Origin: an uncultured Oscillospiraceae bacterium | GTDB taxonomy: Bacteria; Bacillota; Clostridia; Oscillospirales; Oscillospiraceae | NCBI GenBank assembly: GCA_947168655.1 | Contig: CAMVMU010000009.1 | Location: 1 to 45,898, forward strand | Direction of reading: 5' to 3' | Length of the DNA stretch: 45,898 nt | Shown here: one piece after another, positions 16,551 to 30,678 of the stretch | How positions within the stretch are numbered: position 1 is the first letter of the stretch | How the letters are laid out: every line of letters starts with the position of its first letter | Translations under genes and position numbers: made by a program | Notes under the pieces: model-generated | Told to the model about the DNA's origin: nothing | The model's input: only the letters and a program-made list of their open reading frames with translations | Databases searched by the model: none

Positions 16551-16627
16551 GGCGGCATAGCTCAGTTGGCTAGAGCATGCGGTTCATACCCGCAGTGTCC
16601 CCGGTTCAAATCCAGGTGCCGCTACCA
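16551..16627 (+). tRNA. tRNA-Met (CAT)
   Basis: Full cloverleaf with acceptor GGCGGCA / TGCCGCT (first pair G-U), anticodon stem TGCGG / CCGCA, loop TTCATAC with anticodon CAT at 16585-16587, T-arm with GGTTCAAATCC, discriminator A and encoded CCA. It lacks initiator features (CGCGGG start). It looks like elongator Met rather than the lysidine-modified Ile2 tRNA, but sequence alone does not fully exclude Ile2. Confidence 0.93.
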
Positions 16628-16629
16628 TC

Positions 16630-16660
16630 TACCGGTGAGATGCCCGCCATCTCACCGGTA
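16630..16660 (+). other. Hairpin in the tRNA-Met / tRNA-Glu spacer
   Basis: A 13-base perfect inverted repeat (16630-16642 with 16648-16660) with a CCCGC loop, three bases after the encoded CCA. It has no T-tract, so it is not a normal terminator; it may guide 3'-end processing of the precursor. Confidence 0.65.
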
Positions 16661-16683
16661 CCCCCTCGGGGAAAAACAAATAC

Positions 16684-16758
16684 GGCCCGTTGGTCAAGTG
16701 GTTAAGACACGGCCCTTTCACGGCTGTAACATGGGTTCGAATCCCGTACGGGTCACCA
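16684..16758 (+). tRNA. tRNA-Glu (TTC)
   Basis: Acceptor GGCCCGT / ACGGGTC, anticodon loop CTTTCAC with TTC at 16717-16719, T-arm GGGTTCGAATCCC, discriminator A and encoded CCA. Confidence 0.95.
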
Positions 16759-16791
16759 CTCCGGGGCGTGCAGCCGTGCGTCCCGTCATAC

Positions 16792-16868
16792 GGAGGCTTA
16801 GCTCAGCTGGTTAGAGCGCCTGCTTCACACGCAGGAGGTCACTGGTTCGAGTCCAGCAGTCTCCACCA
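16792..16868 (+). tRNA. tRNA-Val (CAC)
   Basis: Acceptor GGAGGCT / AGTCTCC, anticodon stem CCTGC / GCAGG, loop TTCACAC with anticodon CAC at 16826-16828, T-arm GGTTCGAGTCC, discriminator A and encoded CCA. Last gene of the three-tRNA operon. Confidence 0.94.
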
Positions 16869-17047: not shown

Positions 17048-17151
17048 TTTGTTTCAGGGCCGGATGACCGGCATTTCCCCGCATTGTCTGCGCATATTTT
17101 CCTGTTGTAAATAAAGGGCGGCTATGATAAAATATTTGTCGAATTATATAT

Positions 17152-17216: not shown

Positions 17217-19145
17217 ATGGCAGATTACGGCATCGGAAACGAAAAAACCATCAACAGATTCGTAAAGGCGAAGCTGGACGCCTTCGGCGCCATGGAGCGG
17301 GATTTCCGCTCTCTTTTCACGCTGATGTTTCGGGAAGAAAACAACGCGATGTACGAGCGCAGCCAGGGCTACCGGATCCATTCCACCACTTACGGTGAGG
17401 CAAAGGCGCATATCCTGGAAAAGGCCGCCGCAATGAAAACCGTCCTGGGTCATCTGGAACCGGACACCGTGGTGGGCCTGTATATGGACAACAGCCTGGA
17501 GTGGATCGAGACCTTCTGGGCTATTCTGGCGGCGGGGTTCCGCCCGCTGCTGATGAACCTGCGCCTGCCGGACGAGCTGCTGAACGAGGCCGTGTCCGCC
17601 TGCCAATGCCGGGCCGTGATCTCCGCGACGAAGACATTTTCCGTTCTGACGGTGTCTCCCTCGCAGCTCAGCGGTGAGGCGGCCATCCCCCTGCCGGACC
17701 GCTTCGGTTCGGAGCTGCTGGTGATGTCCTCCGGCACCTCCCGCCACGTGAAGGTTTGCGCCTATACGGGCGAGGAGTTCTATTATCAGATCCGGGACAG
17801 CTACGACATCATCCGCAAATGCCGGGCCATCAAACGCCACTGTGATCACCGGCTCAAGCTGCTGACCTTTCTTCCCTTCTATCACGTCTTCGGACTCATC
17901 GCCGTTTACATTTGGTTCGCCTTTTTCTCACGGACGTTCGTACATCTTGCGGATATGTCCCCCCAGACGATCCTGGGCACCATTCGCCGCCACCACGTGA
18001 CCCACATTTTTGCCGTGCCGCTGTTCTGGGAGACGGTCCACGCCCAGGCACTGAAAACCATCCGGGGCAGGGGTGAGGCTACCCAGCGCCGGTTTGACCG
18101 CGCCATGGCCCTGTGGAAAAGGCTGCCCGGCTGGCTGGGCGCCCTGTTCTCCCGCGTGGCGTTCCGCGAGGTGCGGGACAATCTGTTCGGCGAGAGCATT
18201 CGTTTTATGATCACCGGCGGCAGCGCGATCCGCAGTGACACGCTGGCGTTTTTCAACGGCATTGGCTATCGCCTGGCCAACGGCTACGGCATGACAGAAG
18301 TGGGCATCACCTCCGTGGAGCTGTCAACCAGGAAAAAGTATCTCCTCGCCGGCTTTGTGGGCGGTCCCATGTCCAACGCCGAGTACGCCGTCAACGAAAA
18401 CGGCGAGCTGCTGATCCGGGGGCGCGTGCTGGCCAGATACGTGATCTCCGACGGCGTCAGGACGGACCGGGGCGGCTGGTTCAACACCCACGATCTGGTC
18501 CGCTGTGACGGCGGGCACTATCAGATCCTGGGCCGCCGGGACGATCTGATCATCTCGGCCAGCGGCGAAAACCTGAACCCCAACCTGCTGGAGCCCATGC
18601 TGCGTCCCGACGGAGCGGAAGGCGTGTGTCTGATCGGCGCAAAACAGGGCGGTGAGACCACCCCCGTTCTGCTGGTGGCGGTCCATCCCTTCACCTCCGG
18701 GCAGAAGCTGGAGGAGATCACCTCCCGGGTAAAAGCGCTGATCGCGGCGGCAGGACTGTCCGGCGAGATCCGCCGGGTGGCCTTTGTGGCCGGACCGCTG
18801 ATGCAGGGCAACGAATTCAAGCTCAACCGCCTGCGGCTGACTCGCGATTACGAGGCGCGCAGGCTGCCCCTTCTGGACCCGGCGGCGCGGCGGGAAGAGG
18901 CGGTACGGGATGAACTTTTACAGCGGGTGATTACATTTTTTGCCGCCGCGCTGGACAAGGACGTCTCCCAGATCGCCGCAGACGCCGACTTCTTCCAGGA
19001 TGAGGGCGGCACGAGTCTGGACTATTTTGCCATGATATCCCGGATGCAGGAGGAGTTCTGCATCGACTTCCCCACCGACGGGGAGGCGGGATTGCACACC
19101 GCGCGGCAGTTTGCCGACTTCATCAGAAAGGATCTGGCGCGTTGA
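17217..19145 (+). CDS. AMP-dependent acyl ligase fused to an acyl carrier domain
   Basis: The 642-residue product starts at ATG 17217 (GAGG six bases upstream). Residues 1 to about 560 form an adenylating enzyme of the acyl-CoA/acyl-ACP synthetase superfamily. The P-loop region reads SSGTSRHVK (Ser171 onward), keeping the Ser/Thr and Lys but replacing the usual TGxPK spacing residues. NGYGMTEVG, WFNTHDLV and GRRDDLIISASGEN follow, and the C-terminal catalytic Lys lies in GNEFKLNR. Residues from about 570 are a carrier domain with the phosphopantetheine site GGTSLDYF (Ser600). It may activate a carboxylic acid as acyl-AMP and load its own carrier arm. The substrate is unknown; loss of standard P-loop residues could mean altered ATP use. 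First gene of the operon; its stop overlaps the next start. Confidence 0.85.
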   Translation: MADYGIGNEKTINRFVKAKLDAFGAMERDFRSLFTLMFREENNAMYERSQGYRIHSTTYGEAKAHILEKAAAMKTVLGHLEPDTVVGLYMDNSLEWIETFWAILAAGFRPLLMNLRLPDELLNEAVSACQCRAVISATKTFSVLTVSPSQLSGEAAIPLPDRFGSELLVMSSGTSRHVKVCAYTGEEFYYQIRDSYDIIRKCRAIKRHCDHRLKLLTFLPFYHVFGLIAVYIWFAFFSRTFVHLADMSPQTILGTIRRHHVTHIFAVPLFWETVHAQALKTIRGRGEATQRRFDRAMALWKRLPGWLGALFSRVAFREVRDNLFGESIRFMITGGSAIRSDTLAFFNGIGYRLANGYGMTEVGITSVELSTRKKYLLAGFVGGPMSNAEYAVNENGELLIRGRVLARYVISDGVRTDRGGWFNTHDLVRCDGGHYQILGRRDDLIISASGENLNPNLLEPMLRPDGAEGVCLIGAKQGGETTPVLLVAVHPFTSGQKLEEITSRVKALIAAAGLSGEIRRVAFVAGPLMQGNEFKLNRLRLTRDYEARRLPLLDPAARREEAVRDELLQRVITFFAAALDKDVSQIAADADFFQDEGGTSLDYFAMISRMQEEFCIDFPTDGEAGLHTARQFADFIRKDLAR

Positions 19146-19789
19146 GAAGCAGAGCTTCCATCCACTTCTGGAACGGTTTCGTCAAGATCACGGGCTGGCT
19201 CGCCCAGTGGGTCTGCTTCCGCACCCGGATCTATTACGAGGACCGCTCGGTTCAGGGCAGGCGGATCAAAGGCCCTGCCATAATCATATCAAACCACACC
19301 TCGGTCTTTGATTACGCCGTGTACCTGTTCGTCTTTTTCTCCCGGACCGTCCGCTTTCAGATGGCGGAGCTGCTGTTCCGAAAGAAGTTCCTGGGCTGGC
19401 TCCTGCCGCGGCTGGGCGGCATCTACGTGGACCGGGAAGGCTACGATTTCGGCTTTGTTGCCCGGTCCCAGGAGATTCTGGAGCGCGGCGGCGTGGTGGG
19501 GATCTTTCCCGAGAGCCGCTTGCCCCGCCCCGGGGAGGAACGGCCGCTGCCGTTCAAGGTCAGCGCCGCCTATCTGGCGCTTACCACAGGCGTGCCGGTG
19601 ATCCCGGTGGTCACCGATGGGTCCTACTTTCGGCGCAGGCGAGCCCACGTGCTGATCGGCACGCCCATTGACGTCCGGGATTATTCCGACGAATCGCGCA
19701 GTCAGAAGGATGACCTGCGCATCGTCTCCGAGAGTCTCCGCCAGCGCATCATCGAATTGGAGAAGCTGCTCTATGAAAAAAGCAAGTAA
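19142..19789 (+). CDS. PlsC-like acyltransferase 1 (LPLAT family)
   Basis: A 215-residue member of the lysophosphatidate acyltransferase superfamily. Motif I is NHTSVFD (His52, Asp57), the HX4D catalytic pair. Motif III is FPESR, a variant of FPEG, and motif IV is VPVIPVV near residue 145. There is a hydrophobic N-terminal part. The start is TTG at 19142, overlapping the TGA of the ligase by four bases, with AAAGGA upstream: a classic translational-coupling arrangement. The 3' end overlaps the second PlsC gene by 17 bases. The acyl donor is probably acyl-ACP given the neighbours; the acceptor is unknown and need not be lysophosphatidate. Confidence 0.85.
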   Translation: MRSRASIHFWNGFVKITGWLAQWVCFRTRIYYEDRSVQGRRIKGPAIIISNHTSVFDYAVYLFVFFSRTVRFQMAELLFRKKFLGWLLPRLGGIYVDREGYDFGFVARSQEILERGGVVGIFPESRLPRPGEERPLPFKVSAAYLALTTGVPVIPVVTDGSYFRRRRAHVLIGTPIDVRDYSDESRSQKDDLRIVSESLRQRIIELEKLLYEKSK

Positions 19790-20420
19790 CCCCCTCTTCT
19801 CTTTCAAATACCTGTTCTATGACTTTGTCAAGGTGACGTCCGCCCTGCCGGGGCTGCTCTGGTTCCGGCCCAAGTGGGTGTACGAGTCCCCGGAGGCCCG
19901 CAGGAAGATCCGGGGCGGCGCCATTCTCATCGCCAATCATGAGCGGTTTTTCGACCCGATCTACGTGATGTTCGCCGTCTGGTACCGCCGGCACCGCTTC
20001 GTGTGCAGCAAGGAGATCTACAACAGCAAGGGCGGATGGTTCTTCCGCCGGTTCCTGTGTATCCCCGTGGACAGGGAAAACTTCGCCTTGAGCACGCTGC
20101 GCCAGATCGCCGGGGAGATCAAGGCAGGATCCCTGATCTCCATGTTTCCGGAGGGGCACATCAGCCTTTCCGACGGAAAAATGGACGCTTTCAAGTCCGG
20201 CATGGTGCTGATGGCGCTCCAGGGCAGCGCCCCCATCATCCCCATTTACATGAAGCGGGGCGCCCATTTCTACAACCGGTTGCGTATCGCGGTCGGCGAG
20301 CGCGTGGACGTTGTGGCCCGGTACGGCCCCCGTCCCACCATGTCCCAGATCGAGGAGGTCGCCGCCCAGCTGCAGCGCAAAGAAGAAGAATTGAAAAAAC
20401 TGGTGGAAAGCACCAGATAA
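19773..20420 (+). CDS. PlsC-like acyltransferase 2 (LPLAT family)
   Basis: 215 residues from ATG 19773, which lies inside the end of the previous gene. Motif I NHERFFD (His56, Asp61), motif III FPEGHIS, and APIIPIYM near residue 155 are all present; a GGWFFRRFLCIPVDRE segment corresponds to motif II. It differs clearly from acyltransferase 1, so the two are not a recent duplication and probably add acyl groups at different positions or to different acceptors. The C-terminus is a charged helix (LQRKEEELKKL). Confidence 0.86.
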   Translation: MKKASNPLFSFKYLFYDFVKVTSALPGLLWFRPKWVYESPEARRKIRGGAILIANHERFFDPIYVMFAVWYRRHRFVCSKEIYNSKGGWFFRRFLCIPVDRENFALSTLRQIAGEIKAGSLISMFPEGHISLSDGKMDAFKSGMVLMALQGSAPIIPIYMKRGAHFYNRLRIAVGERVDVVARYGPRPTMSQIEEVAAQLQRKEEELKKLVESTR

Positions 20421-20434
20421 GCAAGGAGAATACC

Positions 20435-21946
20435 ATGGTTACGCAGACAAGAGAATTATTCGCGAAGTATACCGATCCGGCGCAGTTCGCGCGGATCCGT
20501 GAGATGGAAACCGTCCCCGAGATGTGGCGCAGCTGTCTGGCGGAATTCCCGGAGGCAACCGCCATCATCGATGGCGACAATTCATACACCTTTGCCCGGC
20601 TGGAGGATGACGCCGCGCGCTTTCGCACGGTGCTGTCGGCCAGTGAGCCCGGCTCCTGCGTCGCCCTGTTTGCCGCCAACTCCTATGACTTTGTCAAAGC
20701 CTATCTGGCCACGGTGACCTCCGGGCGCACGGCTGTGATCTTTCCCGCTCAGCTGGACGCAGCGTCCGTTTTCGGCTGCTGCATGATGTACGGCGTATCC
20801 ACACTGGTATATCAGCCGGACTTTGCCGACCGCGTCGCCCTGGCGGAGCAGAAAATACCCGGCCTGCGTCTGATCCCGGCGGATACCCTGTGTGAGGAAA
20901 AGACCCCCATGACCGACTGCGACGGCGAAACGCCCTGCTGCATCGTCTTTACCGGCGGCACTACCGGGCGCAGCAAGGGCGCGCTGCTGTCCCACCGGGC
21001 GGTGATGCAGGGAACCGTCAACGGCTGCTACGGCTACCGGGACGTGTTCTCACAGCGGTATCTGCTGATCCTGCCCCTGTCCCACGTGTTCGGCCTGATC
21101 CGCAACCTGATGACCTCGCTGTATACCGGCAGCACGCTGTTCATCTGCCGCAACAACAAGGATATGTTCCGGGATATCGCCGTGTTCCGGCCCACCATTC
21201 TGGTGATGGTGCCCGCTCTGGCAGAGATGGCGCTGACACTTTCCAGGAAGTTCGGGCGCAATATGCTGGGACAGGACCTCAAATACATCATCTGCGGCGC
21301 CGCCGCCGTCTCCCCCTATCTGGTGGGGGAATATGACAAAATGGGCATCACCCTCTGCCCCGGCTACGGGCTGACGGAGTCCGCCAACCTGGTCTCCGGC
21401 AATCCGGAGAGCTTGAAAAAGCCCGCCTCTGTGGGCATTCCCTATCCCAACCAGGAGCTGCGGGTGGAAAACGGTGAGCTGTGGCTCAAGGGCAAGAACA
21501 TGATGACCGGCTATGTGGGGGCAGATGATCCCGGCGCCTATGAGGACGGCTGGTTCAAGACCGGCGACCTGGTGCGTTTCGATGAGGACCGCTATCTGTA
21601 TATCACCGGCCGGATCAAGGAGATCATCGTGCTGCCCAGCGGTGAGAACATCTCCCCTGCCGAGCTGGAAGCCCATTTTAACGAGTTGGAATGCGTGCAG
21701 GACTCCCAGGTATTTGAGGACGTGAATGATTTCGGCGCGCACATCCTGGCGCTGGAGGTGGTGCCCCGGGCGACCCAACTCACCGACCTGAGCCCGGAGG
21801 AGCGCAAGGCGGCTATCATCGCCCAGCTGGAGCAGGTCAACGCCGCCCTTCCCACCTATCAGCAGGTCAGTAAAATCACCGTCAGGGATTCGGACTTTGC
21901 CCGTACCCCTGCCATGAAGATTGTGAGATATAAAAAATGTCAATGA
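20435..21946 (+). CDS. AMP-dependent acyl ligase 2 (acyl-ACP/acyl-CoA synthetase family)
   Basis: 503 residues from ATG 20435, with AAGGAG six bases upstream. All family motifs are canonical: P-loop FTGGTTGRSKG, PLSHVFGLIR, CPGYGLTESAN, WFKTGDLVRF, GRIKEIIVLPSGENISP, and the catalytic Lys in TPAMKIVR near the C-terminus. It adenylates a carboxylate and passes it to a thiol. The free carrier protein encoded by the next gene, overlapping by ten bases, is the most likely partner. It differs from ligase 1 in lacking a fused carrier domain and having an intact P-loop. Confidence 0.9.
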   Translation: MVTQTRELFAKYTDPAQFARIREMETVPEMWRSCLAEFPEATAIIDGDNSYTFARLEDDAARFRTVLSASEPGSCVALFAANSYDFVKAYLATVTSGRTAVIFPAQLDAASVFGCCMMYGVSTLVYQPDFADRVALAEQKIPGLRLIPADTLCEEKTPMTDCDGETPCCIVFTGGTTGRSKGALLSHRAVMQGTVNGCYGYRDVFSQRYLLILPLSHVFGLIRNLMTSLYTGSTLFICRNNKDMFRDIAVFRPTILVMVPALAEMALTLSRKFGRNMLGQDLKYIICGAAAVSPYLVGEYDKMGITLCPGYGLTESANLVSGNPESLKKPASVGIPYPNQELRVENGELWLKGKNMMTGYVGADDPGAYEDGWFKTGDLVRFDEDRYLYITGRIKEIIVLPSGENISPAELEAHFNELECVQDSQVFEDVNDFGAHILALEVVPRATQLTDLSPEERKAAIIAQLEQVNAALPTYQQVSKITVRDSDFARTPAMKIVRYKKCQ

Positions 21947-22197
21947 CAAGATCTGAGATTATTGAGGGCCTGCGGGACATCCTGCTGGCCGCCGACGACC
22001 GCAATACGGCGGCGCTGGCCAACTGCAGCGAGCAGTCCCGGCTGATGGCCGATCTGGGCTTTTCGTCGGTGAGCATGCTCTACATGGTCATCGCCATCGA
22101 GGAGAAGTTCGGCATCCGCTTTGACGACAATGTGGGCGCCGCCGACTTCGCCACCCTGGGCGACGTGGTGGACTATATTGAGAAGAAGCTGGCATGA
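21937..22197 (+). CDS. Acyl carrier protein
   Basis: An 86-residue acidic helical carrier protein. The prosthetic-group site is DLGFSSVSML, with Ser44 (the one before Val) as the expected phosphopantetheine attachment residue. Helix III and the C-terminal VVDYIEKK are typical. Its start overlaps the ligase 2 stop by ten bases, and its stop (TGA) shares an ATGA with the next start, so the three genes are probably coupled in translation. It is separate from the housekeeping AcpP, which would sit with fatty acid synthesis genes. Confidence 0.92.
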   Translation: MSMTRSEIIEGLRDILLAADDRNTAALANCSEQSRLMADLGFSSVSMLYMVIAIEEKFGIRFDDNVGAADFATLGDVVDYIEKKLA

Positions 22198-23228
22198 AAT
22201 GGCGCTGCGCGGAATGCCGGAGCGGTGATATGATCCGCGTCCGTCTGGGCTCGGTGTATCACTACGGCATCTTCGTCTCGGAGGACGAGGTCATCGCCTT
22301 TGGGCTCCCGCCGGTGCCGGAATACCAGAATCACCCCCATCGATTTGTGGTGTGCGCTGTGGACGTCGACGTGTTTTCCTGCGGCGTAATCCCCGAAGTG
22401 GCGGAATATGACCTCCGGGAGCGGCGTCAGAAGTTCAGCGACAGGCAGATCGTCGCCAATGCCCGCGCCCGCCTGGGTGAGACCGGATACAACCTGCTCC
22501 ACAACAACTGCGAGCATTTTGCCAACGAGTGTGTTTTCGGAGAGAAGCGCAGCGAGCAGACGGAAAGCGTCCGCCGCCGCTGGCTGGCACGGCCGATCTG
22601 CGATATCTATCTGACGGATATCGTACAGCCGTGCCCCGGGGAGCCGCTCTATCCCCCTCAGCGGGATGCGGAGATCCGCGCCTGCAGCCACGACGGCCTG
22701 CGTGCGGCCAGGTATGCCGCCTGGCAGCTGCTGCTCTTTGCCGGGCGCAGAAGCCTTGCTCTGGACCCGGAACGCCTGAAGTTTCGGAAGACCCATTCCG
22801 GCCAGTGGACGTGCGACAAGATGTTTTTCTCCCTGTCCCACACCAACGACGTGGCCGCTGTCGCCGTCTCCAACGCGCCGGTGGGCGTGGATCTGGAGGC
22901 GCTGAGCGACATGGGCCGGCGGTTTCCGGACGGAGGCGTGCAGCAGCTTTACGACAGCTGGCTGACAAGCGGTGAGAAGCAGCTCTACCCGCCCACCGAC
23001 ATGGGCTTTTTGACCTGCTGGACCCGGAAAGAGGCGGTCTATAAGCGCACAGGCAGGGGCTCCTTCCACCCGCTGCGGGTGGACACGACGAAGGCAGAGG
23101 CCCGCACGTTCCGTCTTCCCGGCGGTTCGGAGCGGATCCTGTCGGTCAGCGGAGAGCACGCCGGCTCCGCCCACCTGTTCACAACCGATTTGATAAAAAC
23201 GACGCTCCTGGCGCCGGAGGAAATCTGA
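22194..23228 (+). CDS. LRAT-type thiol acyltransferase domain fused to 4'-phosphopantetheinyl transferase
   Basis: The 344-residue product has two domains. Residues 1 to about 120 match the LRAT/NlpC-P60-like fold: the HYGIFV strand with His23 and the hallmark NNCEHFANE with Cys106. In LRAT and HRASLS proteins these residues form an acyl-thioester intermediate and move acyl chains between lipids and amines or alcohols. Residues from about 185 match Sfp-type phosphopantetheinyl transferases: FSLSHTNDVAAVAVS, the Mg-binding GVDLEAL (Asp233, Glu235) and WTRKEAVYK (Glu280). The second domain would activate the two carrier domains of this operon. The start ATG overlaps the carrier-protein stop by four bases. 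I know of no described fusion of these two families; the joint reaction is inferred. Confidence 0.85.
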   Translation: MKWRCAECRSGDMIRVRLGSVYHYGIFVSEDEVIAFGLPPVPEYQNHPHRFVVCAVDVDVFSCGVIPEVAEYDLRERRQKFSDRQIVANARARLGETGYNLLHNNCEHFANECVFGEKRSEQTESVRRRWLARPICDIYLTDIVQPCPGEPLYPPQRDAEIRACSHDGLRAARYAAWQLLLFAGRRSLALDPERLKFRKTHSGQWTCDKMFFSLSHTNDVAAVAVSNAPVGVDLEALSDMGRRFPDGGVQQLYDSWLTSGEKQLYPPTDMGFLTCWTRKEAVYKRTGRGSFHPLRVDTTKAEARTFRLPGGSERILSVSGEHAGSAHLFTTDLIKTTLLAPEEI

Positions 23229-23247
23229 GTCTGTTCGGAGATCGCAT

Positions 23248-24168
23248 ATGCATGTATTGTGGATCCTTTTGATTGCCGCCGGGCTGTACGTTTTCTTTTT
23301 TGCCGCACCCGCCGTGGTGGCATATCACCATATCTTTGCCCGCAAACCGGAGCGCTCCCTCAATCTCTCCCAGGGTGCCGGCACCCCTTTTGGGGAACAA
23401 ATCGCCGCCAGCCGGGATGAACTGCTGGCCACGGGCGGGCGGACTGTATCTGTCACCTCCCGGGACGGGCTGCGGCTCTGCGGGACCTATGTGGACTGCG
23501 GCTCGGTGAAAACCGCCCTCTTTCTGCACGGCTACCGGGCCGACTATCTGTCCTGCTGCGCCGTGCAGGCCATGGCGTTCCGCCGGGAGGGATACAATCT
23601 GCTGCTCATCCAGCAGCGCGCCCATGGGAGGAGCGGCGGCACGCAGACCACGTTGGGCATGTACGAGCAGTTCGACCTGCTGGACTGGGTGGAATGGGTC
23701 CGGCGGGAGACGGGCACAGAGCAGATCGTCATCTACGGCGTCTCCATGGGCGGCACCACAGCCGCCCTGGCCTCGGACCGGCTGGACCCGGCGGTGGTGA
23801 AGGTGATCGTGGATGACTGCGGCTTCACCTCTCCCTACGATCAGATCGCCTGGGACGGAAAAAAACGAGGCGTCCCCCCCTGGACTGTTATGCCGGTGAT
23901 CCGCCTGCTGGCGAAATGGCGGCTGAAGACAGACATCAAAACATCGGTGTCGGACTCGCTGTCCCGGACGACCATCCCCTGCTTTTTCCTGCACGGGACA
24001 GCGGATATGACCGTCCCCTACCGGCAGGGCGTGGCCAACTATGAGTCCTGCGCCTCGGACAAGGAGCTGTATACCGTTGAGGGCGGCGGACACACCGTTT
24101 CCTTTATGGCGGGCGGAGAGGCCTGCCGGGAAGCGCTGTTTGCTTTTGTAAGTCAGTACGTCGGTTGA
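23248..24168 (+). CDS. Membrane-anchored alpha/beta hydrolase 1
   Basis: 306 residues from ATG 23248 with GGAG seven bases upstream. An N-terminal transmembrane helix (about 3-25) is followed by an extracytoplasmic or membrane-facing alpha/beta hydrolase domain: oxyanion HGYRA, the nucleophile elbow YGVSMGG (Ser166), acid HGTADMTVP (Asp253) and GGGHTVSF (His282). The triad is complete. In context it may cleave an acyl ester or thioester. It lies 19 bases after the LRAT-PPTase gene. Confidence 0.88.
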   Translation: MHVLWILLIAAGLYVFFFAAPAVVAYHHIFARKPERSLNLSQGAGTPFGEQIAASRDELLATGGRTVSVTSRDGLRLCGTYVDCGSVKTALFLHGYRADYLSCCAVQAMAFRREGYNLLLIQQRAHGRSGGTQTTLGMYEQFDLLDWVEWVRRETGTEQIVIYGVSMGGTTAALASDRLDPAVVKVIVDDCGFTSPYDQIAWDGKKRGVPPWTVMPVIRLLAKWRLKTDIKTSVSDSLSRTTIPCFFLHGTADMTVPYRQGVANYESCASDKELYTVEGGGHTVSFMAGGEACREALFAFVSQYVG

Positions 24169-24206
24169 CCCGACTTTCAAAAAAGATGAAAACGGAGGAA
24201 GAAACT

Positions 24207-25142
24207 GTGAAGAAATTTGTCATTCTTGCGGACGCGACCTGTGACCTCGGTGAGGATTTTCAGCAGAAGTACGACATCCGGGTTATCCCCGGCCATATCA
24301 CACTTCCCGACAAGACGGAGATTCCGTCGATTCTGAAATGGGAAAAGTACACCCGGGAGGAATTCTACGCCGCGCTGAAGAAAAACCCGGCAGGCTACTC
24401 CACAGCGCCAGCCAACGTGCAGGAATTTGCCAACGCCTACGAGCAGATCGTAGCCGACGGCACGGAGCTGCTGGTGATGACCATCTCCAGCGGCATCAGC
24501 GGCACCTACAGCTTCGCCTGCTCGGCAAAGAAGCTGGTTCTGGAGAAGTATCCCGACGCCAAAATCACCTGCGTGGACTCCCTCCGCTTCGGCCCCGGCT
24601 TTGGACTGATGGCGGTTTACGCCTCCATCCTGCGCGACGAGGGCAAGAGCATGGAGGAGGTGGCCGCGTACCTGGAGGCCAACAAAAACCGCTTCCACCA
24701 GGCCGGCTGGCTGGACGATCTGTCCTATGTGGCAAAGCAGGGCCGTCTGACCCACGCCAAGGCCTTTCTGGGCACACTGGCAGGTGTCAAGCCCATCGGT
24801 GAGTTCGACTATAACGGCATGACCACCGTTATCGGCAAGGCCAAGGGAGCCAAGGCTGCCTACGCCGCCCTGCTGGAGTACATCGCCCAGACCATTGAGA
24901 ATCCGGCCGAGCAGATCATCTTCATTGCCCAGACCAGCCGGTATCCCCAGGCGGTGGAGTTCCAGCGCATGATCCAGGAGCGCTTCCATCCCAAAGAGAT
25001 CTACATCAAGGACGTGTTTCCCTCCTGCGGCATCAATATCGGTCCCGGCCTGATGGCCGCCTATTACGTGGGCAAGCCCATCTCCGCCGACCTGTCGGAG
25101 GAGCGGGCAATCCTGGATAAGGCTTTGAACAACAACGGTTAA
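24207..25142 (+). CDS. DegV-family fatty-acid-binding protein (FakB-like)
   Basis: 311 residues. I prefer the GTG start at 24207, with GGAGG eight bases upstream and the usual family N-terminus (VKKFVILADATCDL); an in-frame ATG at 24186 has no ribosome-binding site. The fatty-acid head-group loop SSGISGTYS (Ser94 onward) and the LSYVAKQGRLTHAKAFLGTLAGVKPI stretch are diagnostic. FakB proteins bind a free fatty acid and present it to FakA for phosphorylation. A FakA-like gene lies two genes downstream, which supports this role. Variation at DSLRFGPGFG, where the family often has a small-residue loop, could reflect an unusual acyl ligand. Confidence 0.9.
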   Translation: MKKFVILADATCDLGEDFQQKYDIRVIPGHITLPDKTEIPSILKWEKYTREEFYAALKKNPAGYSTAPANVQEFANAYEQIVADGTELLVMTISSGISGTYSFACSAKKLVLEKYPDAKITCVDSLRFGPGFGLMAVYASILRDEGKSMEEVAAYLEANKNRFHQAGWLDDLSYVAKQGRLTHAKAFLGTLAGVKPIGEFDYNGMTTVIGKAKGAKAAYAALLEYIAQTIENPAEQIIFIAQTSRYPQAVEFQRMIQERFHPKEIYIKDVFPSCGINIGPGLMAAYYVGKPISADLSEERAILDKALNNNG

Positions 25143-25153
25143 GGAGGATCGAC

Positions 25154-26494
25154 ATGAAAAAGATCACCGGTAGAGGAAAAATCATTCTCTACGCCGCATC
25201 CGGCCTGGGCATCAACATGCTGAACCTGATGATGGGCTCCTATCTCTGCAGCGCGCTGCTGGTGGGCGGCTTCGCCGCAAAGGATGTGCCGTTCCAGACC
25301 TTTGCCCAGCGCGATCTGGTCGTGGCCGGCGTGTGGGCGGTGTTCGCCCTGATCGCCAAAATCATCGACGGCGTCATTGACATCCCCATGGCCGCCTTTA
25401 CCGACGGCCTGCGCACCCGCTTCGGCCGCCGCCGCCCGGCGCTGCTCATCGGCCTCATTCCCCTGGTCCTGGCCTACGCGGCCTTTCTCATCATCCCCAA
25501 CCCCTCCGGCGCGACGATCCTCAACACCGTGTACTACGGCGTGGTGCTGTGCATCTTCTACAGCTTCTACACCCTGACCATGGTGAACTACTACGCCACC
25601 TTTACCGAGATCGTGGAGACGGAGCACGAGCGCAACCTGCTCTCCAACGCCAAATCCGTATTCGACATCTTCTACTTTATCCTGGGCTACGTGGTGGTGC
25701 GCATGCTGCTCAATAGTATGAATATCACCAAGGTCGCCCTGATCGTTCTGCCCATCGCCCTCACCATGCTGATCCCCCTCTTCATGATCAAGGAGCCGGA
25801 TCTGCGCAGCAAGCAGGCGTCCGAGAAAATGCCCCGGCTGAGCCTGACCAAGTCTTTGGCCTATACCTTCCGGGATAAGCCGTTCATCCTGTGGATGTGC
25901 GTCTACGCCTTCATGACCTTCGGCGTACAGCTGTTTTTGGGCGGCATCAATGAGTATTTCTCCCACGTGGGCATGAGCATGATCTTCGTCATGGTCGCCG
26001 CCTTTGCGCCGGTGCCCTTTACGCTGATGCTGTATGACAAGATCCTGCGCAGGCGTGGCTTTGGGTTTGCCTACCGCTACATCCTTATCACCTACATTGT
26101 GGGTATGATGTCCATGTTCGGCGTCTCCTTCCTGCCCCAGGGCGGGATGAAGACCGCGCTTTCCATCGTGGCCGGACTCATCAGCTCCTTCGCCATCGGC
26201 GCCATGTTCGCCGTGGCGTATTCGCTGCCCTCCCAGTTCGCTGCGGAGGAAGAGCAGCGCAGCGGCGTATCCCATGCGGCCATGTATTTTGCCGTGCAGG
26301 GTCTGTTTGCCGGCGTCGCCACCGGCATCGGTGCAGGCGTTGTGCTCACCGCCCTGAAAGGTACCGAGGGTCAGCATTCCGACGCCATTCGCTATCTGAC
26401 CCCCATCTGCGCCGCAGCTATTCTGGTGTCCTTCCTGCTGTCTTGGCTCTTGCCCAAAAAGGTGATGGACATGGGCCGGGAGGAAAAGAAGTAA
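25154..26494 (+). CDS. MFS transporter of the GPH (MelB-like) family
   Basis: A 446-residue polytopic membrane protein with about twelve hydrophobic segments. The loop 2-3 signature AFTDGLRTRFGRRRP and the preceding KIIDGVIDIPM, with spaced acidic residues, place it in the glycoside-pentoside-hexuronide:cation symporter family. That family also contains the MFSD2A lysolipid transporter. With lipid-acting genes on both sides, an acylated substrate or its precursor is a reasonable guess, but a sugar is equally possible from sequence alone. It starts 11 bases after the DegV gene with AAGGAGG upstream. Confidence 0.88.
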   Translation: MKKITGRGKIILYAASGLGINMLNLMMGSYLCSALLVGGFAAKDVPFQTFAQRDLVVAGVWAVFALIAKIIDGVIDIPMAAFTDGLRTRFGRRRPALLIGLIPLVLAYAAFLIIPNPSGATILNTVYYGVVLCIFYSFYTLTMVNYYATFTEIVETEHERNLLSNAKSVFDIFYFILGYVVVRMLLNSMNITKVALIVLPIALTMLIPLFMIKEPDLRSKQASEKMPRLSLTKSLAYTFRDKPFILWMCVYAFMTFGVQLFLGGINEYFSHVGMSMIFVMVAAFAPVPFTLMLYDKILRRRGFGFAYRYILITYIVGMMSMFGVSFLPQGGMKTALSIVAGLISSFAIGAMFAVAYSLPSQFAAEEEQRSGVSHAAMYFAVQGLFAGVATGIGAGVVLTALKGTEGQHSDAIRYLTPICAAAILVSFLLSWLLPKKVMDMGREEKK

Positions 26495-26531
26495 CACCGG
26501 ACAAATATCTCCAGGAAGTGATGGAAAGAAT

Positions 26532-28178
26532 ATGGCAATCAGAAGAATTAACGGTATCCACCTTGAGCAGATGCTGCGCAACGGACTTGCCAACCTGCAG
26601 CGCGACGAGGAGGAGATCAACCGCCTGAACGTGTTTCCGGTGGCTGACGGTGACACCGGAACCAACATGCGCATGACGCTGCAGTACGGGCTGCAGTGCG
26701 CCCGCCCGTCCGCGGAAGCAGGACAGTTCCTCAAATCCCTCAGTGACGGGATGCTTCTGGGCGCCAGGGGCAATTCCGGCGTGATCCTCTCCCAGTTTTT
26801 CAACGGTTTCTGCACGGAGCTCTCCCGCTGCAGTCTGATCGGGCCGGGCGAACTGCGCAACGGACTGATCCGGGGCTACCGCACGGCCTACCAGGCCGTG
26901 ATCCAGCCGGTGGAGGGCACGATCCTGTCCGTGGCGCGGGAGGGTATTGAGCATATCCGCACCCAGATCAGCCGCACCACCGGGGTGGACGCGCTGCTGT
27001 CCATGTACGTGGCTGAGATGCGCAAGACCCTTGCCCTGACGCCGGAGATGCTCTCCGTGCTGAAGGAGGCCGGCGTTGTGGACAGCGGTGCTGCCGGCTT
27101 TATCCTGATCTTTGACGGTATGCTCCGGTATCTCCGCGGCGAGACCATCGATCCCGGCGTGGATGCCGCGCCGGCGGCAGATCCGCATCAGCCGGCGCTG
27201 AACCTGGATCTTTTCAACGAGAACAGCCCGTTCATTGACGGCTACTGCATGGAATTTATTCTCCAGCTGATGCTGGACCCCGCCTACGACCAGACCTTCC
27301 GTCTGCCCCGTTTTATCGAGTTGCTGAAAGGCCTGGGCGAGTCCATTGTCTGCGTGCAGGACGGCAAGCGGGTCAAGGTGCACATCCACACCAAGACCCC
27401 GGCCCGGATTATTACGCTCGCCCAGCGGTACGGCGAGTTTCTCACCTTCAAGCTGGACAACATGCAGGTCCAGCACAACGAACACGACCGCCTGACCCAG
27501 CCCGCGGCTCACAAGGCTCTCGCCGTGGTGTCGGTGGTCAACGGTGAGGGGATGCGTGAGCTGTTCACGGATCTGGGGTGCGACGTGGTCATCGACGGCG
27601 GCGCCACCATGAACACCTCCTCCCAGGAGTTCGTATCCGCCTTTGAGCAGATCGACGCAGACGCCATCGTGGTGCTGCCCAACAACAAAAACGTGATCCT
27701 GGCCGCGGAGCAGGCGGCAGGGCTTGTCAAAGGCAAAAACGTCACCGTGCTCCCCTCTGCCAGCTATGCCGACGGGTATTTTGCCATCGCCATGGATATG
27801 CGGGACAGCGAGGATACCGCGCTGCGCATCACCCAGATGCGCAGGGGCATTGACGGTGTTGTCACCCTGTGCCAGACCACCGCATCCCGGGATTACGCCT
27901 ACCATGAGATCAGCTGTAAAAAGGGCGAGGAGATCGTCCTGAACAATGGGCAGCTGGTGTGCGTCTCCGGCGACTGGAAATCCGCCATCGTGGACTCCAT
28001 GGCCATGGTGGAGGATATGGAGGACCGGGAGACCTGCGTCATCTTCCGGGGCAAGGGGATCCCCGAATCCTATGAGGAGGAGCTGGCTGAGGTTATTTCG
28101 TCCGCTTTCCCGCTGCTGGAGGTCCAGTTTGTCGGCGGCGGTCAGGAGATCTATCACTGGGTGATTGGGATCATGTGA
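26532..28178 (+). CDS. DAK2-domain kinase, FakA-like fatty acid kinase
   Basis: The 548-residue product has the FakA/YloV layout. The N-terminal DAK2 domain binds ATP, with the metal-binding motif NVFPVADGDTGTNM (Asp39, Asp41) and GARGNSGVILSQFFNGF. A linker and a C-terminal DegV-related domain follow (SVVNGEGMRELFTDLG; ILPNNKN-like VVLPNNKNVI). In FakA-FakB systems the kinase makes acyl-phosphate from a FakB-bound fatty acid for entry into phospholipids. It is probably not the housekeeping copy, because it is not next to the usual Asp23-family (YloU) gene and sits inside this operon. It is 37 bases after the transporter and 7 bases before the next gene. Confidence 0.9.
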   Translation: MAIRRINGIHLEQMLRNGLANLQRDEEEINRLNVFPVADGDTGTNMRMTLQYGLQCARPSAEAGQFLKSLSDGMLLGARGNSGVILSQFFNGFCTELSRCSLIGPGELRNGLIRGYRTAYQAVIQPVEGTILSVAREGIEHIRTQISRTTGVDALLSMYVAEMRKTLALTPEMLSVLKEAGVVDSGAAGFILIFDGMLRYLRGETIDPGVDAAPAADPHQPALNLDLFNENSPFIDGYCMEFILQLMLDPAYDQTFRLPRFIELLKGLGESIVCVQDGKRVKVHIHTKTPARIITLAQRYGEFLTFKLDNMQVQHNEHDRLTQPAAHKALAVVSVVNGEGMRELFTDLGCDVVIDGGATMNTSSQEFVSAFEQIDADAIVVLPNNKNVILAAEQAAGLVKGKNVTVLPSASYADGYFAIAMDMRDSEDTALRITQMRRGIDGVVTLCQTTASRDYAYHEISCKKGEEIVLNNGQLVCVSGDWKSAIVDSMAMVEDMEDRETCVIFRGKGIPESYEEELAEVISSAFPLLEVQFVGGGQEIYHWVIGIM

Positions 28179-28185
28179 GGTACGT

Positions 28186-29145
28186 ATGCTTTGGTTGAAA
28201 ATTGCCATCAGTGTATTCTTCTTTCTGATCCTGCTTCCCACGCTGCTGATAGCCGGAGTGATCTACACCGTGCTGCTGGTGCGGACGAATCAGTCGAAAT
28301 TCGGCAGGAAGTGCAGCTTCCCCGACGACGAGGAATACGTCCGCATGTTCAACATCGGCCTTGTGTGGGGCGAGAAGTGGAAGGACTGCAAGCGAGACGT
28401 CAGCGTCACCAGCGATAATCTGCATCTGGTGGGCGAGTACTTTGATTTTGGCGGTGACAAGGCTGCCATCATCATCGCCGGCCGCACGGAGTGCCTGCTC
28501 TACTCCTATTACTTTGCCGAGCCCTTCCGCCAGGCGGGATGCAACGTACTGGTCATCGACAACCGCGCCCACGGCCTGTCTGAGGGCAGGGTGTCGTGCC
28601 TGGGCTATAAGGAGTACCGGGACATCCTGCGCTGGTGTGAACTGCTCCACGACGAGCTGGGCAACAAAAAGGTGATGCTGCACGGCATCTGCATCGGCGC
28701 GTCCACCGCCCTGTTTGCCGCCGCAGACAAGGATTGCCCGGATTATGTGGCGGGCATGAGCGCCGAGGGCATGTACGTGAACTTCTACGAGTCCTTTGTC
28801 AACCACATGAAGGTGGACCGGCCTAAAAAACCCCGGTTCCCCATTGTGCAGGAGACCATGCTGATGATCCGGCTCTTCTCCGGCGCAAACGTAGTGACGG
28901 ATGGGCCTCTGCGGCGCATTGGAAAGCTGAAAAAGCCCATTTTGTTCCTGCACAGCCGGGAGGACCAGTTCTCCACGCCGGATCAGGCGGAACTGCTGTA
29001 CGAGAATTGCACCGCCCCCAAACAGCTGGTCTGGTTCGACCGGGGGGCCCACTCCCGGATCCGCATCAACAACACGGAGAAATACGACGAGACCATCGTG
29101 GGATTCGTGCAGCAGTTGGATGGATCCCCTGCTTTTTCCGATTAA
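28186..29145 (+). CDS. Membrane-anchored alpha/beta-hydrolase-fold protein with Cys nucleophile
   Basis: 319 residues from ATG 28186 (GAGG five bases upstream). It has an N-terminal transmembrane helix (about 5-30), then an alpha/beta hydrolase fold. The nucleophile elbow is LHGICIGAS, so Cys169 stands where hydrolase 1 has Ser. The acid SREDQF (Asp260) and base RGAHSR (His289) are in place. G-x-C-x-G is known from polyhydroxyalkanoate synthases and dienelactone hydrolase, and a thiol nucleophile favours acyl transfer over hydrolysis. It is the last gene of the operon; a new promoter begins right after its stop. Confidence 0.85.
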   Translation: MLWLKIAISVFFFLILLPTLLIAGVIYTVLLVRTNQSKFGRKCSFPDDEEYVRMFNIGLVWGEKWKDCKRDVSVTSDNLHLVGEYFDFGGDKAAIIIAGRTECLLYSYYFAEPFRQAGCNVLVIDNRAHGLSEGRVSCLGYKEYRDILRWCELLHDELGNKKVMLHGICIGASTALFAAADKDCPDYVAGMSAEGMYVNFYESFVNHMKVDRPKKPRFPIVQETMLMIRLFSGANVVTDGPLRRIGKLKKPILFLHSREDQFSTPDQAELLYENCTAPKQLVWFDRGAHSRIRINNTEKYDETIVGFVQQLDGSPAFSD

Positions 29146-29247: not shown

Positions 29248-29514
29248 ATGGAACAGAACAATCAACCCAATCTGCTGGTATTCGGCATCCTGAGCATCGT
29301 GTTCAGCTCTATTGTCGGCATCATTCTCGGTGCCATTGGCAGAAGCAAGGGCAAGAAGTACATCCAGGCCGGCGGCACCCTGACCGGCGCGGCTAAGGTC
29401 GGCTACATCCTCAGCCTGGTTGGTATCATCCTGGGCATTATCGTCACGGTGTACGTCATCATCATGGCTATCGTAGCCGGCGGCGCTGCAGCTTCCTATT
29501 CCGGCAGCTTCTAA
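29248..29514 (+). CDS. Small two-helix membrane protein (DUF4190-like)
   Basis: 88 residues from ATG 29248, with a strong GAGGGAGG site seven bases upstream. Two hydrophobic segments (about 8-28 and 50-75) are joined by a basic loop GRSKGKKYIQAGG, in the pattern of DUF4190-type proteins; then comes a short Gly/Ala/Ser tail. Function unknown. It has its own consensus promoter and terminator, so it is a single-gene unit separate from the acyl operon. Confidence 0.75.
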   Translation: MEQNNQPNLLVFGILSIVFSSIVGIILGAIGRSKGKKYIQAGGTLTGAAKVGYILSLVGIILGIIVTVYVIIMAIVAGGAAASYSGSF

Positions 29515-29530
29515 TCTTTCCCACGCATCG

Positions 29531-29569
29531 ACGCGTGACGCCGCTTTAGCGGCGTCACGCGTTTGCTTT
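29531..29569 (+). terminator. Terminator of the small membrane protein gene
   Basis: Perfect 14-base stem (29531-29544 with 29549-29562), TTTA loop, followed by TTGCTTT. Confidence 0.88.
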
Positions 29570-29649: not shown

Positions 29650-30678
29650 ATGCCGATCCTTCATAATAAGGGCTCCGACACCCGGCGCGGATTATCGTTC
29701 CGGAAGGGGTTGAGGATCCTCTTGACCGTATTACTGATATACTCTCTGAGCTCCATGCTGCTCTCCGCCGTGATGTTCCGGGTGCTGTTCCGCCGCACTG
29801 ACGGCCTGAGTCCCATCCGCTACACCTACAGCGAGGTGGATCACGAGGCTTACCCGAGGCAGTCGTTCTCCTTCCCTTCCGGAGACCACGTGCTCAGCGC
29901 CTGCCGCTATCCGGCGGCCAATGCCTCCGGCGAGATCGTGGTGATCAACGGCATCAGCGCAGGGATCGACTCCCACCTGGCTGAGATCATGTACTTTATT
30001 GACCACGGCTGGTCTGTGGTGACCTGGGACGCCACCGGCGTGGGCGGCAGCGGCGGAAGAGGTCTGATCGGATTGCAGCAGATTCGCCTGGATCTGATCG
30101 CCTACCTGGATTACCGCCAGGCACAGGGGGAGACGCTGCCTCTGGTGCTGTACGGCCACAGCGCCGGCGCGTATGCCGCCGCCACCGTGCTGGACGGGGA
30201 CGGCTATCCCGTCTGCGGCTCCGTGTGCCTGTGCGGGTTCGACTCCCCTCTGTCCGTCATGCTCTATCACGCACGGCAGCGTGTGGGCGTGCTGGCGGAT
30301 GCTCAGTATCCCTTTTTGCTGCTGGAAAACCTCTTTCTCTTCGGGAAGGACGCGGACATCTCTGCCATCGAGTCCATCAACCACAGCAAGGCCCACGTGC
30401 TGCTGGTGGAGAGCAGCTCCGACGATCTCGTCCCCCACGAACTCGGCCTGCTGCGAAACGGATCGGAGTTCTCCAACCCCAACGTCAGCGCCGTGACGGT
30501 GGACTCCCACTGGAGAAATGAACACAACACGCCATGGCTTTCATCGGCGGCAGCGGAATACGTCGGTTCCATCGCACCCGGCGAGACCGTGGACAAGCAG
30601 CGCTCATGCGAACTGGACCCGGCGTTTATGGAACAGGTCCTGGCTTTTTTCACCGAGGCGGTAAGCGAGGCCGGTTGA
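29650..30678 (+). CDS. Membrane-anchored alpha/beta hydrolase 3
   Basis: 342 residues from ATG 29650; an in-frame GTG at 29641 with GGAG just upstream is an alternative start. It has one N-terminal transmembrane segment (about 25-45) and then a hydrolase fold with the elbow YGHSAGAYAA (Ser171). The later acid and base regions (ESSSDDLVPHE; DSHWRNEH) are plausible but less clear. It is the third membrane-tethered hydrolase-fold protein in seven kilobases, but it is separated from the acyl operon by a terminator, and I see no promoter for it. Substrate unknown. Confidence 0.8.
   Translation: MPILHNKGSDTRRGLSFRKGLRILLTVLLIYSLSSMLLSAVMFRVLFRRTDGLSPIRYTYSEVDHEAYPRQSFSFPSGDHVLSACRYPAANASGEIVVINGISAGIDSHLAEIMYFIDHGWSVVTWDATGVGGSGGRGLIGLQQIRLDLIAYLDYRQAQGETLPLVLYGHSAGAYAAATVLDGDGYPVCGSVCLCGFDSPLSVMLYHARQRVGVLADAQYPFLLLENLFLFGKDADISAIESINHSKAHVLLVESSSDDLVPHELGLLRNGSEFSNPNVSAVTVDSHWRNEHNTPWLSSAAAEYVGSIAPGETVDKQRSCELDPAFMEQVLAFFTEAVSEAG

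What the first reader, a model, noticed from the sequence alone, without database searches (positions are those of the whole stretch)
17217..29145. Undescribed eleven-gene acyl activation, loading and transfer operon
Eleven plus-strand genes with overlaps or gaps of at most 67 bases (most under 40) combine: AMP ligase-carrier fusion, two distinct PlsC-like acyltransferases, second AMP ligase, free carrier protein, LRAT-PPTase fusion, membrane Ser hydrolase, FakB-like DegV protein, GPH transporter, FakA-like kinase and a Cys-nucleophile hydrolase-fold protein. The set carries two ways of activating fatty acids (acyl-AMP and acyl-phosphate), two carrier domains and their own activating enzyme, and at least three acyl-transfer folds. 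There is no ketosynthase or condensation domain, so it should join or remodel ready-made acyl chains rather than build them. I infer a dedicated pathway for an acylated membrane lipid or small acyl metabolite. I do not recognise a named pathway of this composition.
Basis: partly seen in the sequence, partly recalled or inferred. Interest (0 to 1): 0.93.

Follow-up and report, generated by a model that had tools for sequence, protein, structure and literature searches.

The report
Clostridial lipid acyl-swapping operon
An eleven-gene bacterial operon, found in largely the same order in many Clostridia mostly from animal guts, is predicted to load fatty acids onto its own carrier proteins and likely swap them into membrane lipids, which would suit its hosts, since most of those tested show no FabF, a standard fatty-acid-making enzyme.

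Summary
In detail: eleven same-strand genes (17217-29145), gaps of at most 37 bases, domains as described; a DUF4190-like gene and a third hydrolase follow. The set recurs in 80 kept loci, mostly gut Clostridia by record title, plus two spirochaetes. Of 54 loci with enough upstream sequence, 41 hold all five upstream genes; of 48 with enough downstream sequence, 32 hold HydA, DegV, FakA and HydB. It is patchy (fusion gene in 3 of 32 congeneric genomes) and looks horizontally exchanged. FabF was found in 0 of 32 congeners and 10 of 50 carriers, so acyl chains probably come from outside. My searches found no description.

Best reading (inferred): an acyl-exchange system working like LplT-Aas lysophospholipid recycling plus a Lands-type cut-and-reacylate step. 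LigB would load the operon's ACP; two variants without LigB carry FakAB and PlsX. Two PlsC enzymes would use the acyl-ACP. The LRAT domain's nearest solved relatives are phospholipase A/acyltransferases; the transporter's top Foldseek match is MFSD2A, a lysolipid carrier, with MelB close. PlsC-LigB, PlsC-PlsC and PlsC-LRAT fusions in relatives support coupling. Substrate, acceptor and product are unproven; a specialised lipid pathway is the main rival.

The parts
17105..17133 (+). promoter-like site upstream of the operon (TTGTAA-17-TAAAAT, TG before the second hexamer)
   Evidence: consensus scan only, 9 of 12; not evidence of function
17217..19145 (+). LigA: AMP-forming acid ligase fused to a C-terminal carrier domain
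   Evidence: PF00501 1.3e-36 and PF00550 1.4e-6; carrier Ser600 in 58 of 58 aligned; nearest solved relatives MenE-type ligases
19142..19789 (+). PlsCa: PlsC-like acyltransferase
   Evidence: PF01553 8e-21; N51 H52...D57 in 66 of 66 aligned
19776..20420 (+). PlsCb: second PlsC-like acyltransferase
   Evidence: PF01553 2e-19; best NCBIfam model NF006386 (acyl-[ACP]--phospholipid O-acyltransferase), far below its whole-protein cut-off
20426..21946 (+). LigB: AMP-forming ligase, predicted acyl-ACP synthetase
   Evidence: PF00501 3.9e-55; fused to PlsCb in L083
21937..22197 (+). ACP: free carrier protein
   Evidence: PF00550 1.9e-5; Ser44 in 75 of 75 aligned
22194..23228 (+). LRAT-PPTase: LRAT/PLAAT-like domain (about 7-118) fused to an Sfp-like 4'-phosphopantetheinyl transferase (about 150-296)
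   Evidence: PF04970 1.1e-15, PF01648 6.2e-8; PLA2G16/PLAAT3 and Sfp are the nearest solved relatives of the two halves; His23, Cys106, Asp233, Glu235, Glu280, Lys284 in 30 of 30
23248..24168 (+). HydA: membrane-anchored Ser-nucleophile alpha/beta hydrolase
   Evidence: PF00561/PF12146 about 4e-16; Ser166, Asp253, His282 in 57 of 57 aligned; one N-terminal hydrophobic segment
24165..25142 (+). DegV/FakB-like fatty-acid-binding protein
   Evidence: TIGR00762 203.5 bits, over its cut-off 99.7; FakB structures among the nearest
25154..26494 (+). GPH-type MFS transporter, predicted lysolipid or acyl-lipid carrier
   Evidence: PF13347 1.5e-30; Foldseek top three MFSD2A, then MelB; VIA tie
26532..28178 (+). 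FakA-like kinase, paralogue of the housekeeping YloV
   Evidence: TIGR03599 480.9 bits over 396.1; 32% identical to the YloV of the same genome
28186..29145 (+). HydB: membrane-anchored Cys-nucleophile alpha/beta hydrolase-fold protein, predicted acyltransferase
   Evidence: PF00561 1e-12; Cys168/Asp259/His288 in 46 of 46 aligned (numbered from 28189); AlphaFold2 mean pLDDT 95.4
29248..29514 (+). DUF4190-like small membrane protein that follows
   Evidence: PF13828 9e-4, below its cut-off; such hits in 35 of 80 loci
29530..29563 (+). terminator-like hairpin, 15 pairs, possible end of the main transcript
29650..30678 (+). HydC: third alpha/beta hydrolase that follows
   Evidence: PF12146 1.4e-10; Ser172, Asp259, His293 in 39 of 39 aligned (numbered from 29647); HydC-type hits in 38 of 80 loci, the distant ones with low scores
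30733..30764 (.). bidirectional terminator-like hairpin between HydC and the convergent ABC transporter genes

Best explanation
This is a conserved eleven-gene operon that is predicted to exchange acyl chains on membrane lipids: it would load imported fatty acids onto its own carrier proteins and pass them to two PlsC-type acyltransferases that likely reacylate lysolipids. Inferred steps: (1) the PPTase half of the LRAT-PPTase protein primes the free ACP and the LigA carrier; (2) LigB (acyl-ACP synthetase), or FakB/FakA acyl-phosphate handed on by PlsX, loads the free ACP, while LigA loads its own carrier with a second acid; (3) the LRAT domain, acting as a PLAAT-like phospholipase/transacylase, opens a membrane phospholipid or shuttles its acyl group; (4) the GPH transporter brings in or flips the lysolipid; (5) PlsCa and PlsCb add the chains from the two carriers; (6) HydA/HydB/HydC trim or transfer acyl groups, HydB with a Cys nucleophile as a transferase. 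Shown here are only the gene content, domain identity, conserved catalytic residues, synteny, fusions in relatives and the lack of FabF matches; every chemical step is inferred.
For: Gene content and synteny. PlsCb-LigB as one protein, the domain pair of Aas, in L083. PlsCa-PlsCb as one protein in L106 and L073. A PlsC-LRAT fusion protein in Treponema (L143, Pfam; five clusters P0121-P0125), and a PlsC-type gene next to a patatin phospholipase in the comparable place of L117: a phospholipase-type domain is paired with PlsC twice. L111 and L113 lack LigB but carry DegV-DegV-FakA-PlsX with LigA-PlsCa-PlsCb-ACP-LRAT, so both routes plausibly load the ACP. The nearest solved relatives of the LRAT half are PLAAT/PLA2G16. 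GPH: Foldseek ranks three MFSD2A entries (3.1e-11 to 2.5e-10) above MelB (1.3e-8). A compact variant is LigA-GPH-PlsCa-PlsCb-LigB-ACP-LRAT-PPTase without Fak genes in the stretch. Hosts: FabF over cut-off in 0 of 32 genus genomes; 40 of 50 carriers lack a match at 1e-20; GPH-carrying loci lie in FabF-less genomes in 35 of 38 cases, GPH-less ones in 1 of 5 (not corrected for kinship, 7 of 50 unassessed). LplT and Aas work as a transporter-acyltransferase pair (PMC11416262, abstract read).
Confidence: 0.5

Rival explanations
1. A biosynthetic cluster for a specialised acylated lipid or glycolipid: LigA activates an unusual acid, the two PlsC enzymes and the Cys hydrolase acylate a dedicated acceptor, and GPH imports or exports the acceptor or product.
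For: Dedicated carriers and PPTase; patchy distribution (fusion gene in 3 of 32 genus genomes; LRAT-profile matches in 7 of 391 class genomes); operon proteins differ far more than housekeeping ones between two congeners (LRAT-PPTase 49%, HydA 48% against YloV 94%); glycosyltransferase in L111 and L113 and deacetylase in L111 and L094 nearby; the PlsC-LRAT fusion sits beside a KS-CLF cluster in Treponema.
Against: No chain-building enzyme found in the window operon; no glycosyltransferase or deacetylase among its genes; the core enzymes have ordinary phospholipid-remodelling counterparts.
Confidence: 0.33
2. A plain fatty-acid scavenging booster for bacteria without fatty acid synthesis: exogenous acids are activated twice over and fed into ordinary phosphatidic acid synthesis.
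For: FabF in 0 of 32 genus genomes and missing in 40 of 50 carriers; PlsX in 73 of 80 tested genomes; FakA-, FakB- and acyl-ACP-synthetase-like enzymes present.
Against: The genus already has YloV matches in 32 of 32 genomes, 30 over cut-off, with an extra copy in the three carriers, and PlsX in 19 of 19 tested; it does not explain LRAT, three hydrolases, a private ACP and PPTase, or LigA with its own carrier.
Confidence: 0.12
3. A sugar-linked pathway: GPH imports a glycosylglycerol (for example from plant galactolipids in the rumen) which the two PlsC enzymes rebuild into a glycolipid.
For: GPH family members carry galactosides (family knowledge); VIA Z for MelB equals that for MFSD2A; many loci are from rumen or other forestomach samples by record title.
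Against: Foldseek ranks MFSD2A first; the GPH sequence profile matched MFSD2A weakly (E 0.036) and not MelB up to E 10; no glycosidase or sugar kinase in the operon.
Confidence: 0.05

Closest known systems
LplT-Aas lysophospholipid recycling system (E. coli; PMC11416262, abstract)
   Same: MFS-fold transporter working with a PlsC domain and an acyl-ACP synthetase domain; a relative (L083) has a PlsC-ligase fusion
   Different: split genes, GPH-type instead of LplT-type transporter, private ACP and PPTase, an added LRAT domain, FakAB-like genes, a second ligase-carrier, a second PlsC and two or three hydrolases
FakAB-PlsX fatty acid kinase route of Firmicutes
   Same: DegV binding protein, Dak2-type kinase, and in L111 and L113 an adjacent PlsX
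   Different: a separate paralogue 32% identical to the YloV of the same genome, embedded with ligases, LRAT and PlsC genes
Lands cycle (phospholipase A plus lysophospholipid acyltransferase; PMC9022965, search listing only)
   Same: PLAAT-like domain paired with PlsC acyltransferases, fused in Treponema
   Different: presumed acyl-ACP rather than acyl-CoA donor, bacterial, activity untested
Vertebrate PLAAT/LRAT acyltransferases
   Same: LRAT domain, invariant first His and NCEHF Cys
   Different: third catalytic residue Gln or Ala, fused to a PPTase
MFSD2A lysophosphatidylcholine symporter
   Same: top Foldseek match; an Asp-x3-Asp pair aligned
   Different: about 15-17% identity; substrate untested; MelB equally close by VIA
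Aryl polyene clusters (recalled)
   Same: ligase, carriers, PlsC-like acyltransferase and PPTase together
   Different: no ketosynthase in the operon

Membership tests
LplT-Aas system | Aas: PlsC and acyl-ACP synthetase domains in one protein | tested here: not met
   separate genes in the window; fused only in relative L083 among the ORFs of 80 loci
LplT-Aas system | curated model of the acyl-[ACP]--phospholipid O-acyltransferase over cut-off | tested here: not met
   NF006386 78.7 bits for PlsCb against a cut-off of 1221 for the whole protein
LplT-Aas system | lysophospholipid flipping and reacylation | not testable with these tools
   needs assay
FakAB fatty acid kinase | Dak2 + middle + C-terminal FakA domains | tested here: met
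   PF02734, PF21645, PF13684; TIGR03599 over cut-off
FakAB fatty acid kinase | FakA and FakB1 equivalog scores | tested here: not met
   NF038248 355 of 975; NF038249 109.1 of 350
FakAB fatty acid kinase | fatty-acid phosphorylation | not testable with these tools
   needs assay
LRAT/PLAAT | Pfam LRAT over cut-off | tested here: met
   58.5 against 24.3 bits
LRAT/PLAAT | nucleophile Cys and first His | tested here: met
   Cys106 and His23 in 30 of 30
LRAT/PLAAT | second catalytic His (recalled for PLAAT3) | tested here: not met
   Gln 17, Ala 13 of 30 at residue 35; the Treponema PlsC-LRAT protein reads VVHFS there by eye
Sfp-type PPTase | Pfam ACPS over cut-off and the conserved Asp, Glu, Glu, Lys residues | tested here: met
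   33.1 against 25 bits; Asp233, Glu235, Glu280, Lys284 in 30 of 30
MFSD2A-like lysolipid transporters | closer in sequence and fold to MFSD2A than to MelB | tested here: inconclusive
   Foldseek favours MFSD2A, VIA ties, profile E 0.036
PKS/NRPS or aryl polyene cluster | ketosynthase or condensation domain in the cluster | tested here: not met
   none among operon and scanned flanking genes

The most novel reading that the evidence does not exclude
A self-contained bacterial Lands cycle: gut Clostridia that cannot make fatty acids import host- or diet-derived lysolipids through an MFSD2A-like flippase, cut and rebuild them with a PLAAT-type enzyme and two acyltransferases, and run this on a private acyl-carrier economy with its own loading enzymes, carriers and PPTase.
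Probability: 0.3. Interest if true: 0.85.

Novelty: new variant of a known kind. Interest (0 to 1): 0.72.

Why it matters
If right, it is a lipid-remodelling system not described in the papers that my searches listed, in bacteria that would live on other organisms' lipids, and it links PLAAT/MFSD2A-type chemistry, best known from animals, to acyl-ACP biochemistry in Clostridia. It makes testable how FabF-less gut bacteria furnish their membranes and whether they rework host or dietary lysolipids. It also gives LRAT-PPTase fusions (both domains in 114 of the 120 homologous clusters listed) a first functional setting.

Tried and rejected
Rejected: apparent ACP-LRAT-PPTase and PlsCb-LigB fusions in L088 (lengths, Pfam) were read-through of overlapping stop-to-stop frames. 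Rejected: aryl-polyene or PKS cluster, as there is no KS in the operon. Tried without result: plasmid and phage carriers of the fusion (12 plasmid records match, the ten listed by their LRAT part only, none over 80% of the query; no phage match); an orthologous empty site (the ABC neighbour matches at 1e-150 in 10 of 32 genus genomes, the window's own included, nine at 83-100% identity; in the five read further neither operon nor tRNA genes lie beside it, so no clean junction was found). Ten literature searches listed no description of the LRAT-PPTase fusion or the operon; the library holds open-licence papers only, and only the best 8-15 of 20-748 papers were listed. HydB structural neighbours DcsB and GrgF are recalled to use Cys nucleophiles on carrier-bound substrates; a paper search did not confirm it.

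Limits: the tool kept the best 80 of 193 relatives. The LRAT-PPTase profile used 29 of 594 homologues (120 listed) plus the window protein. Gene assignments are best hits among 17 window queries. One search dropped hits under 85% of query length and over-long ones. FabF was tested in the genomes of 50 of the 80 loci, chosen by me. G099 and G104 repeat G025 and G011, so two genomes occur twice among the 80. In one search at most five first-look candidates per genome were scored. The GPH/FabF test left 7 of 50 loci unassessed; of these L063 (no FabF) and L074 (FabF) show no GPH between DegV and FakA. The 11-of-36 figure for all ten partner genes is lowered by real variants and by the best-hit rule. 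LigA identity to G011 is over 391 of 642 residues, as the fetched stretch cuts the gene. That most loci are from guts rests on record titles, reading RUG names as rumen (recalled).
Full report
Observation. The window carries eleven plus-strand genes from 17217 to 29145 with spacings between -14 and +37 bases. Pfam and NCBIfam give: LigA, an AMP-forming ligase with a C-terminal carrier; PlsCa and PlsCb; LigB, a second ligase; a free ACP; LRAT fused to an Sfp-like PPTase; HydA; a DegV/FakB-like protein; a GPH-type MFS transporter; a FakA-like kinase; HydB. Catalytic residues are conserved: LRAT His23 and Cys106 and PPTase Asp233, Glu235, Glu280, Lys284 in 30 of 30; HydB Cys168, Asp259, His288 in 46 of 46; carrier serines 44 (ACP, 75 of 75) and 600 (LigA, 58 of 58); all these counts include the window protein. 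A DUF4190-like gene (29248-29514) and HydC (29650-30678) follow; a 15-pair terminator-like hairpin lies between them.

Conservation. A profile of 30 LRAT-PPTase proteins found 193 relatives in genome contigs, of which 80 loci were kept, mostly rumen and gut Clostridia by record title, plus two spirochaetes. With enough flank, 41 of 54 loci have all of LigA, PlsCa, PlsCb, LigB and ACP upstream; 32 of 48 have HydA, DegV, FakA and HydB downstream, 23 of 48 with GPH as well; 11 of 36 loci complete on both sides show all ten partners. Among the rest are structured variants: a GPH-less rumen group; a compact LigA-GPH-PlsCa-PlsCb-LigB-ACP-LRAT-PPTase form without Fak genes in the stretch; and others. 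Distances of operon genes correlate at 0.45-0.90. Operon FakA proteins (49 rows, window included) separate from three housekeeping YloV on a fully supported branch; the place of the longest rows, L101 above all, is unsure.

Mobility. The fusion occurs in 3 of 32 genomes of the genus (G000, G011, G025). The profile matches in 7 of 391 genomes of the class, three of these being LRAT without the PPTase. Between the window genome G000 and its congener G011, housekeeping YloV is 94% and PlsX 90% identical, but LigA is 55 (over 391 residues), PlsCa 70, PlsCb 58, LigB 74, LRAT-PPTase 49, HydA 48, DegV 74, FakA 69, HydB 75 and HydC 71% identical, with the operon at another place. GPH alone is 90% identical, which suggests a separate exchange of that gene. 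This fits horizontal exchange, though faster evolution of the operon is not excluded.

Hosts. No genome of the genus has FabF (0 of 32 over cut-off; only short weak matches in 28 of 32; none at 1e-20). FabH-type matches occur in 1 of 19 genus genomes tested and 3 of 50 carriers, against 8 of 11 FabF-bearing comparison genomes. FabF is missing in 40 of 50 carriers and in 36 of 67 relatives outside the genus (Fisher p 0.0035, not corrected for kinship). PlsX is present in 73 of 80. Acyl chains therefore probably come from outside in most carriers; many of these genomes are incomplete. GPH-carrying loci lie in FabF-less genomes in 35 of 38 cases, GPH-less ones in 1 of 5 (p 0.0013, not corrected for kinship; 7 loci unassessed).

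Which parts work together. In L083 PlsCb and LigB are one protein, the Aas domain pair. In L106 and L073 the two PlsC domains are one protein. In L111 and L113 LigB and the PPTase half are missing while DegV-DegV-FakA-PlsX accompany LigA-PlsCa-PlsCb-ACP-LRAT; L112 has the core without LigB, with a stand-alone PPTase and no Fak genes in the stretch. PlsX would turn acyl-phosphate into acyl-ACP, so LigB and Fak-PlsX look like alternative loaders of the same ACP (inferred). In the window genome a PlsX lies elsewhere. In two genomes of the genus of L101, 97% identical over 10.9 kb, a PlsC-LRAT fusion protein (100% identical to a protein named Treponema sp.) lies next to a cluster of ACP, fused KS-CLF, FabG-, FabA/Z- and reductase-like genes; five homologous clusters exist. 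In L117 a PlsC-type gene and a patatin stand in the comparable place. A phospholipase-type domain is thus paired with PlsC in two ways, which favours cut-and-reacylate chemistry.

Transporter and hydrolases. The GPH model (26 sequences, mean pLDDT 86.3) has three MFSD2A entries as best Foldseek matches, then MelB; two more MFSD2A entries rank sixth and ninth. VIA-align ties them. The sequence profile matches only SUC1 (E 0.0018) and MFSD2A (E 0.036) among solved structures; its invariant Asp72 and Asp76 align with an Asp-x3-Asp of MFSD2A (that this is the cation site is recalled). HydB (30 sequences, pLDDT 95.4) is closest to the Pf2001 esterase, with DcsB and GrgF next by VIA and monoacylglycerol lipases prominent in Foldseek. 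HydA and HydB have one N-terminal hydrophobic segment with more positive charge after it, suggesting a cytosolic catalytic domain; HydC shows the reverse (a simple rule).

Conclusion. The operon works most like a private, acyl-ACP-based LplT-Aas plus Lands-type exchange system. It is not a member of LplT-Aas (fusion and model tests not met) and not a proven phospholipase pathway (third LRAT residue altered). The main rival is a specialised lipid pathway. No description was listed in ten searches of an open-licence library. Papers: PMC11416262, abstract and start of introduction; PMC10167227, passages; all others search listings only.

Noticed in passing
L116 (G144:C56), L117 (G146:C81), L118 (G130:C10), L146 (G553:C19), L147 (G571:C20): Clusters of ACP, fused KS-CLF of about 800 aa, FabG-like, FabA/Z-like and flavodoxin-fold reductase genes (FabA domain scanned in L117, reductase in L116, KS, the rest by eye); PlsX-like matches beside those of L116 and L118. 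Possibly a separate polyene- or fatty-acid-type pathway.
   Followed up: partly
L143:1435-2469 (-); clusters P0121-P0125: A PlsC-LRAT fusion protein in Treponema next to a KS-CLF cluster.
   Followed up: partly
window 25154-26494 against L135 (G011:C8): GPH is 90% identical between two congeners while the other compared operon genes are 48-75% identical, as if that gene alone had been exchanged.
   Followed up: no
L111, L112, L113: LRAT without PPTase in variant operons; a family-2 glycosyltransferase nearby in L111 and L113 (Pfam) and a similar gene in L112 by eye; a polysaccharide deacetylase in L111 (Pfam) and a similar gene in L113 by eye.
   Followed up: partly
L082:4949-6934 and similar: GPH of the compact variant has about 200 extra C-terminal residues with further hydrophobic segments.
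   Followed up: no
whole genus of the window genome: No FabF over cut-off in any of 32 genomes, including one rated 100% complete.
   Followed up: partly
plasmid NZ_KP942676.1 100454-100960: Stand-alone LRAT-family genes on proteobacterial plasmids, here near a colicin-like gene and its immunity gene.
   Followed up: no
window 16551-16868: Three tRNA genes (Met, Glu, Val) directly upstream of the operon; not found beside the conserved ABC neighbour in five congeners.
   Followed up: partly
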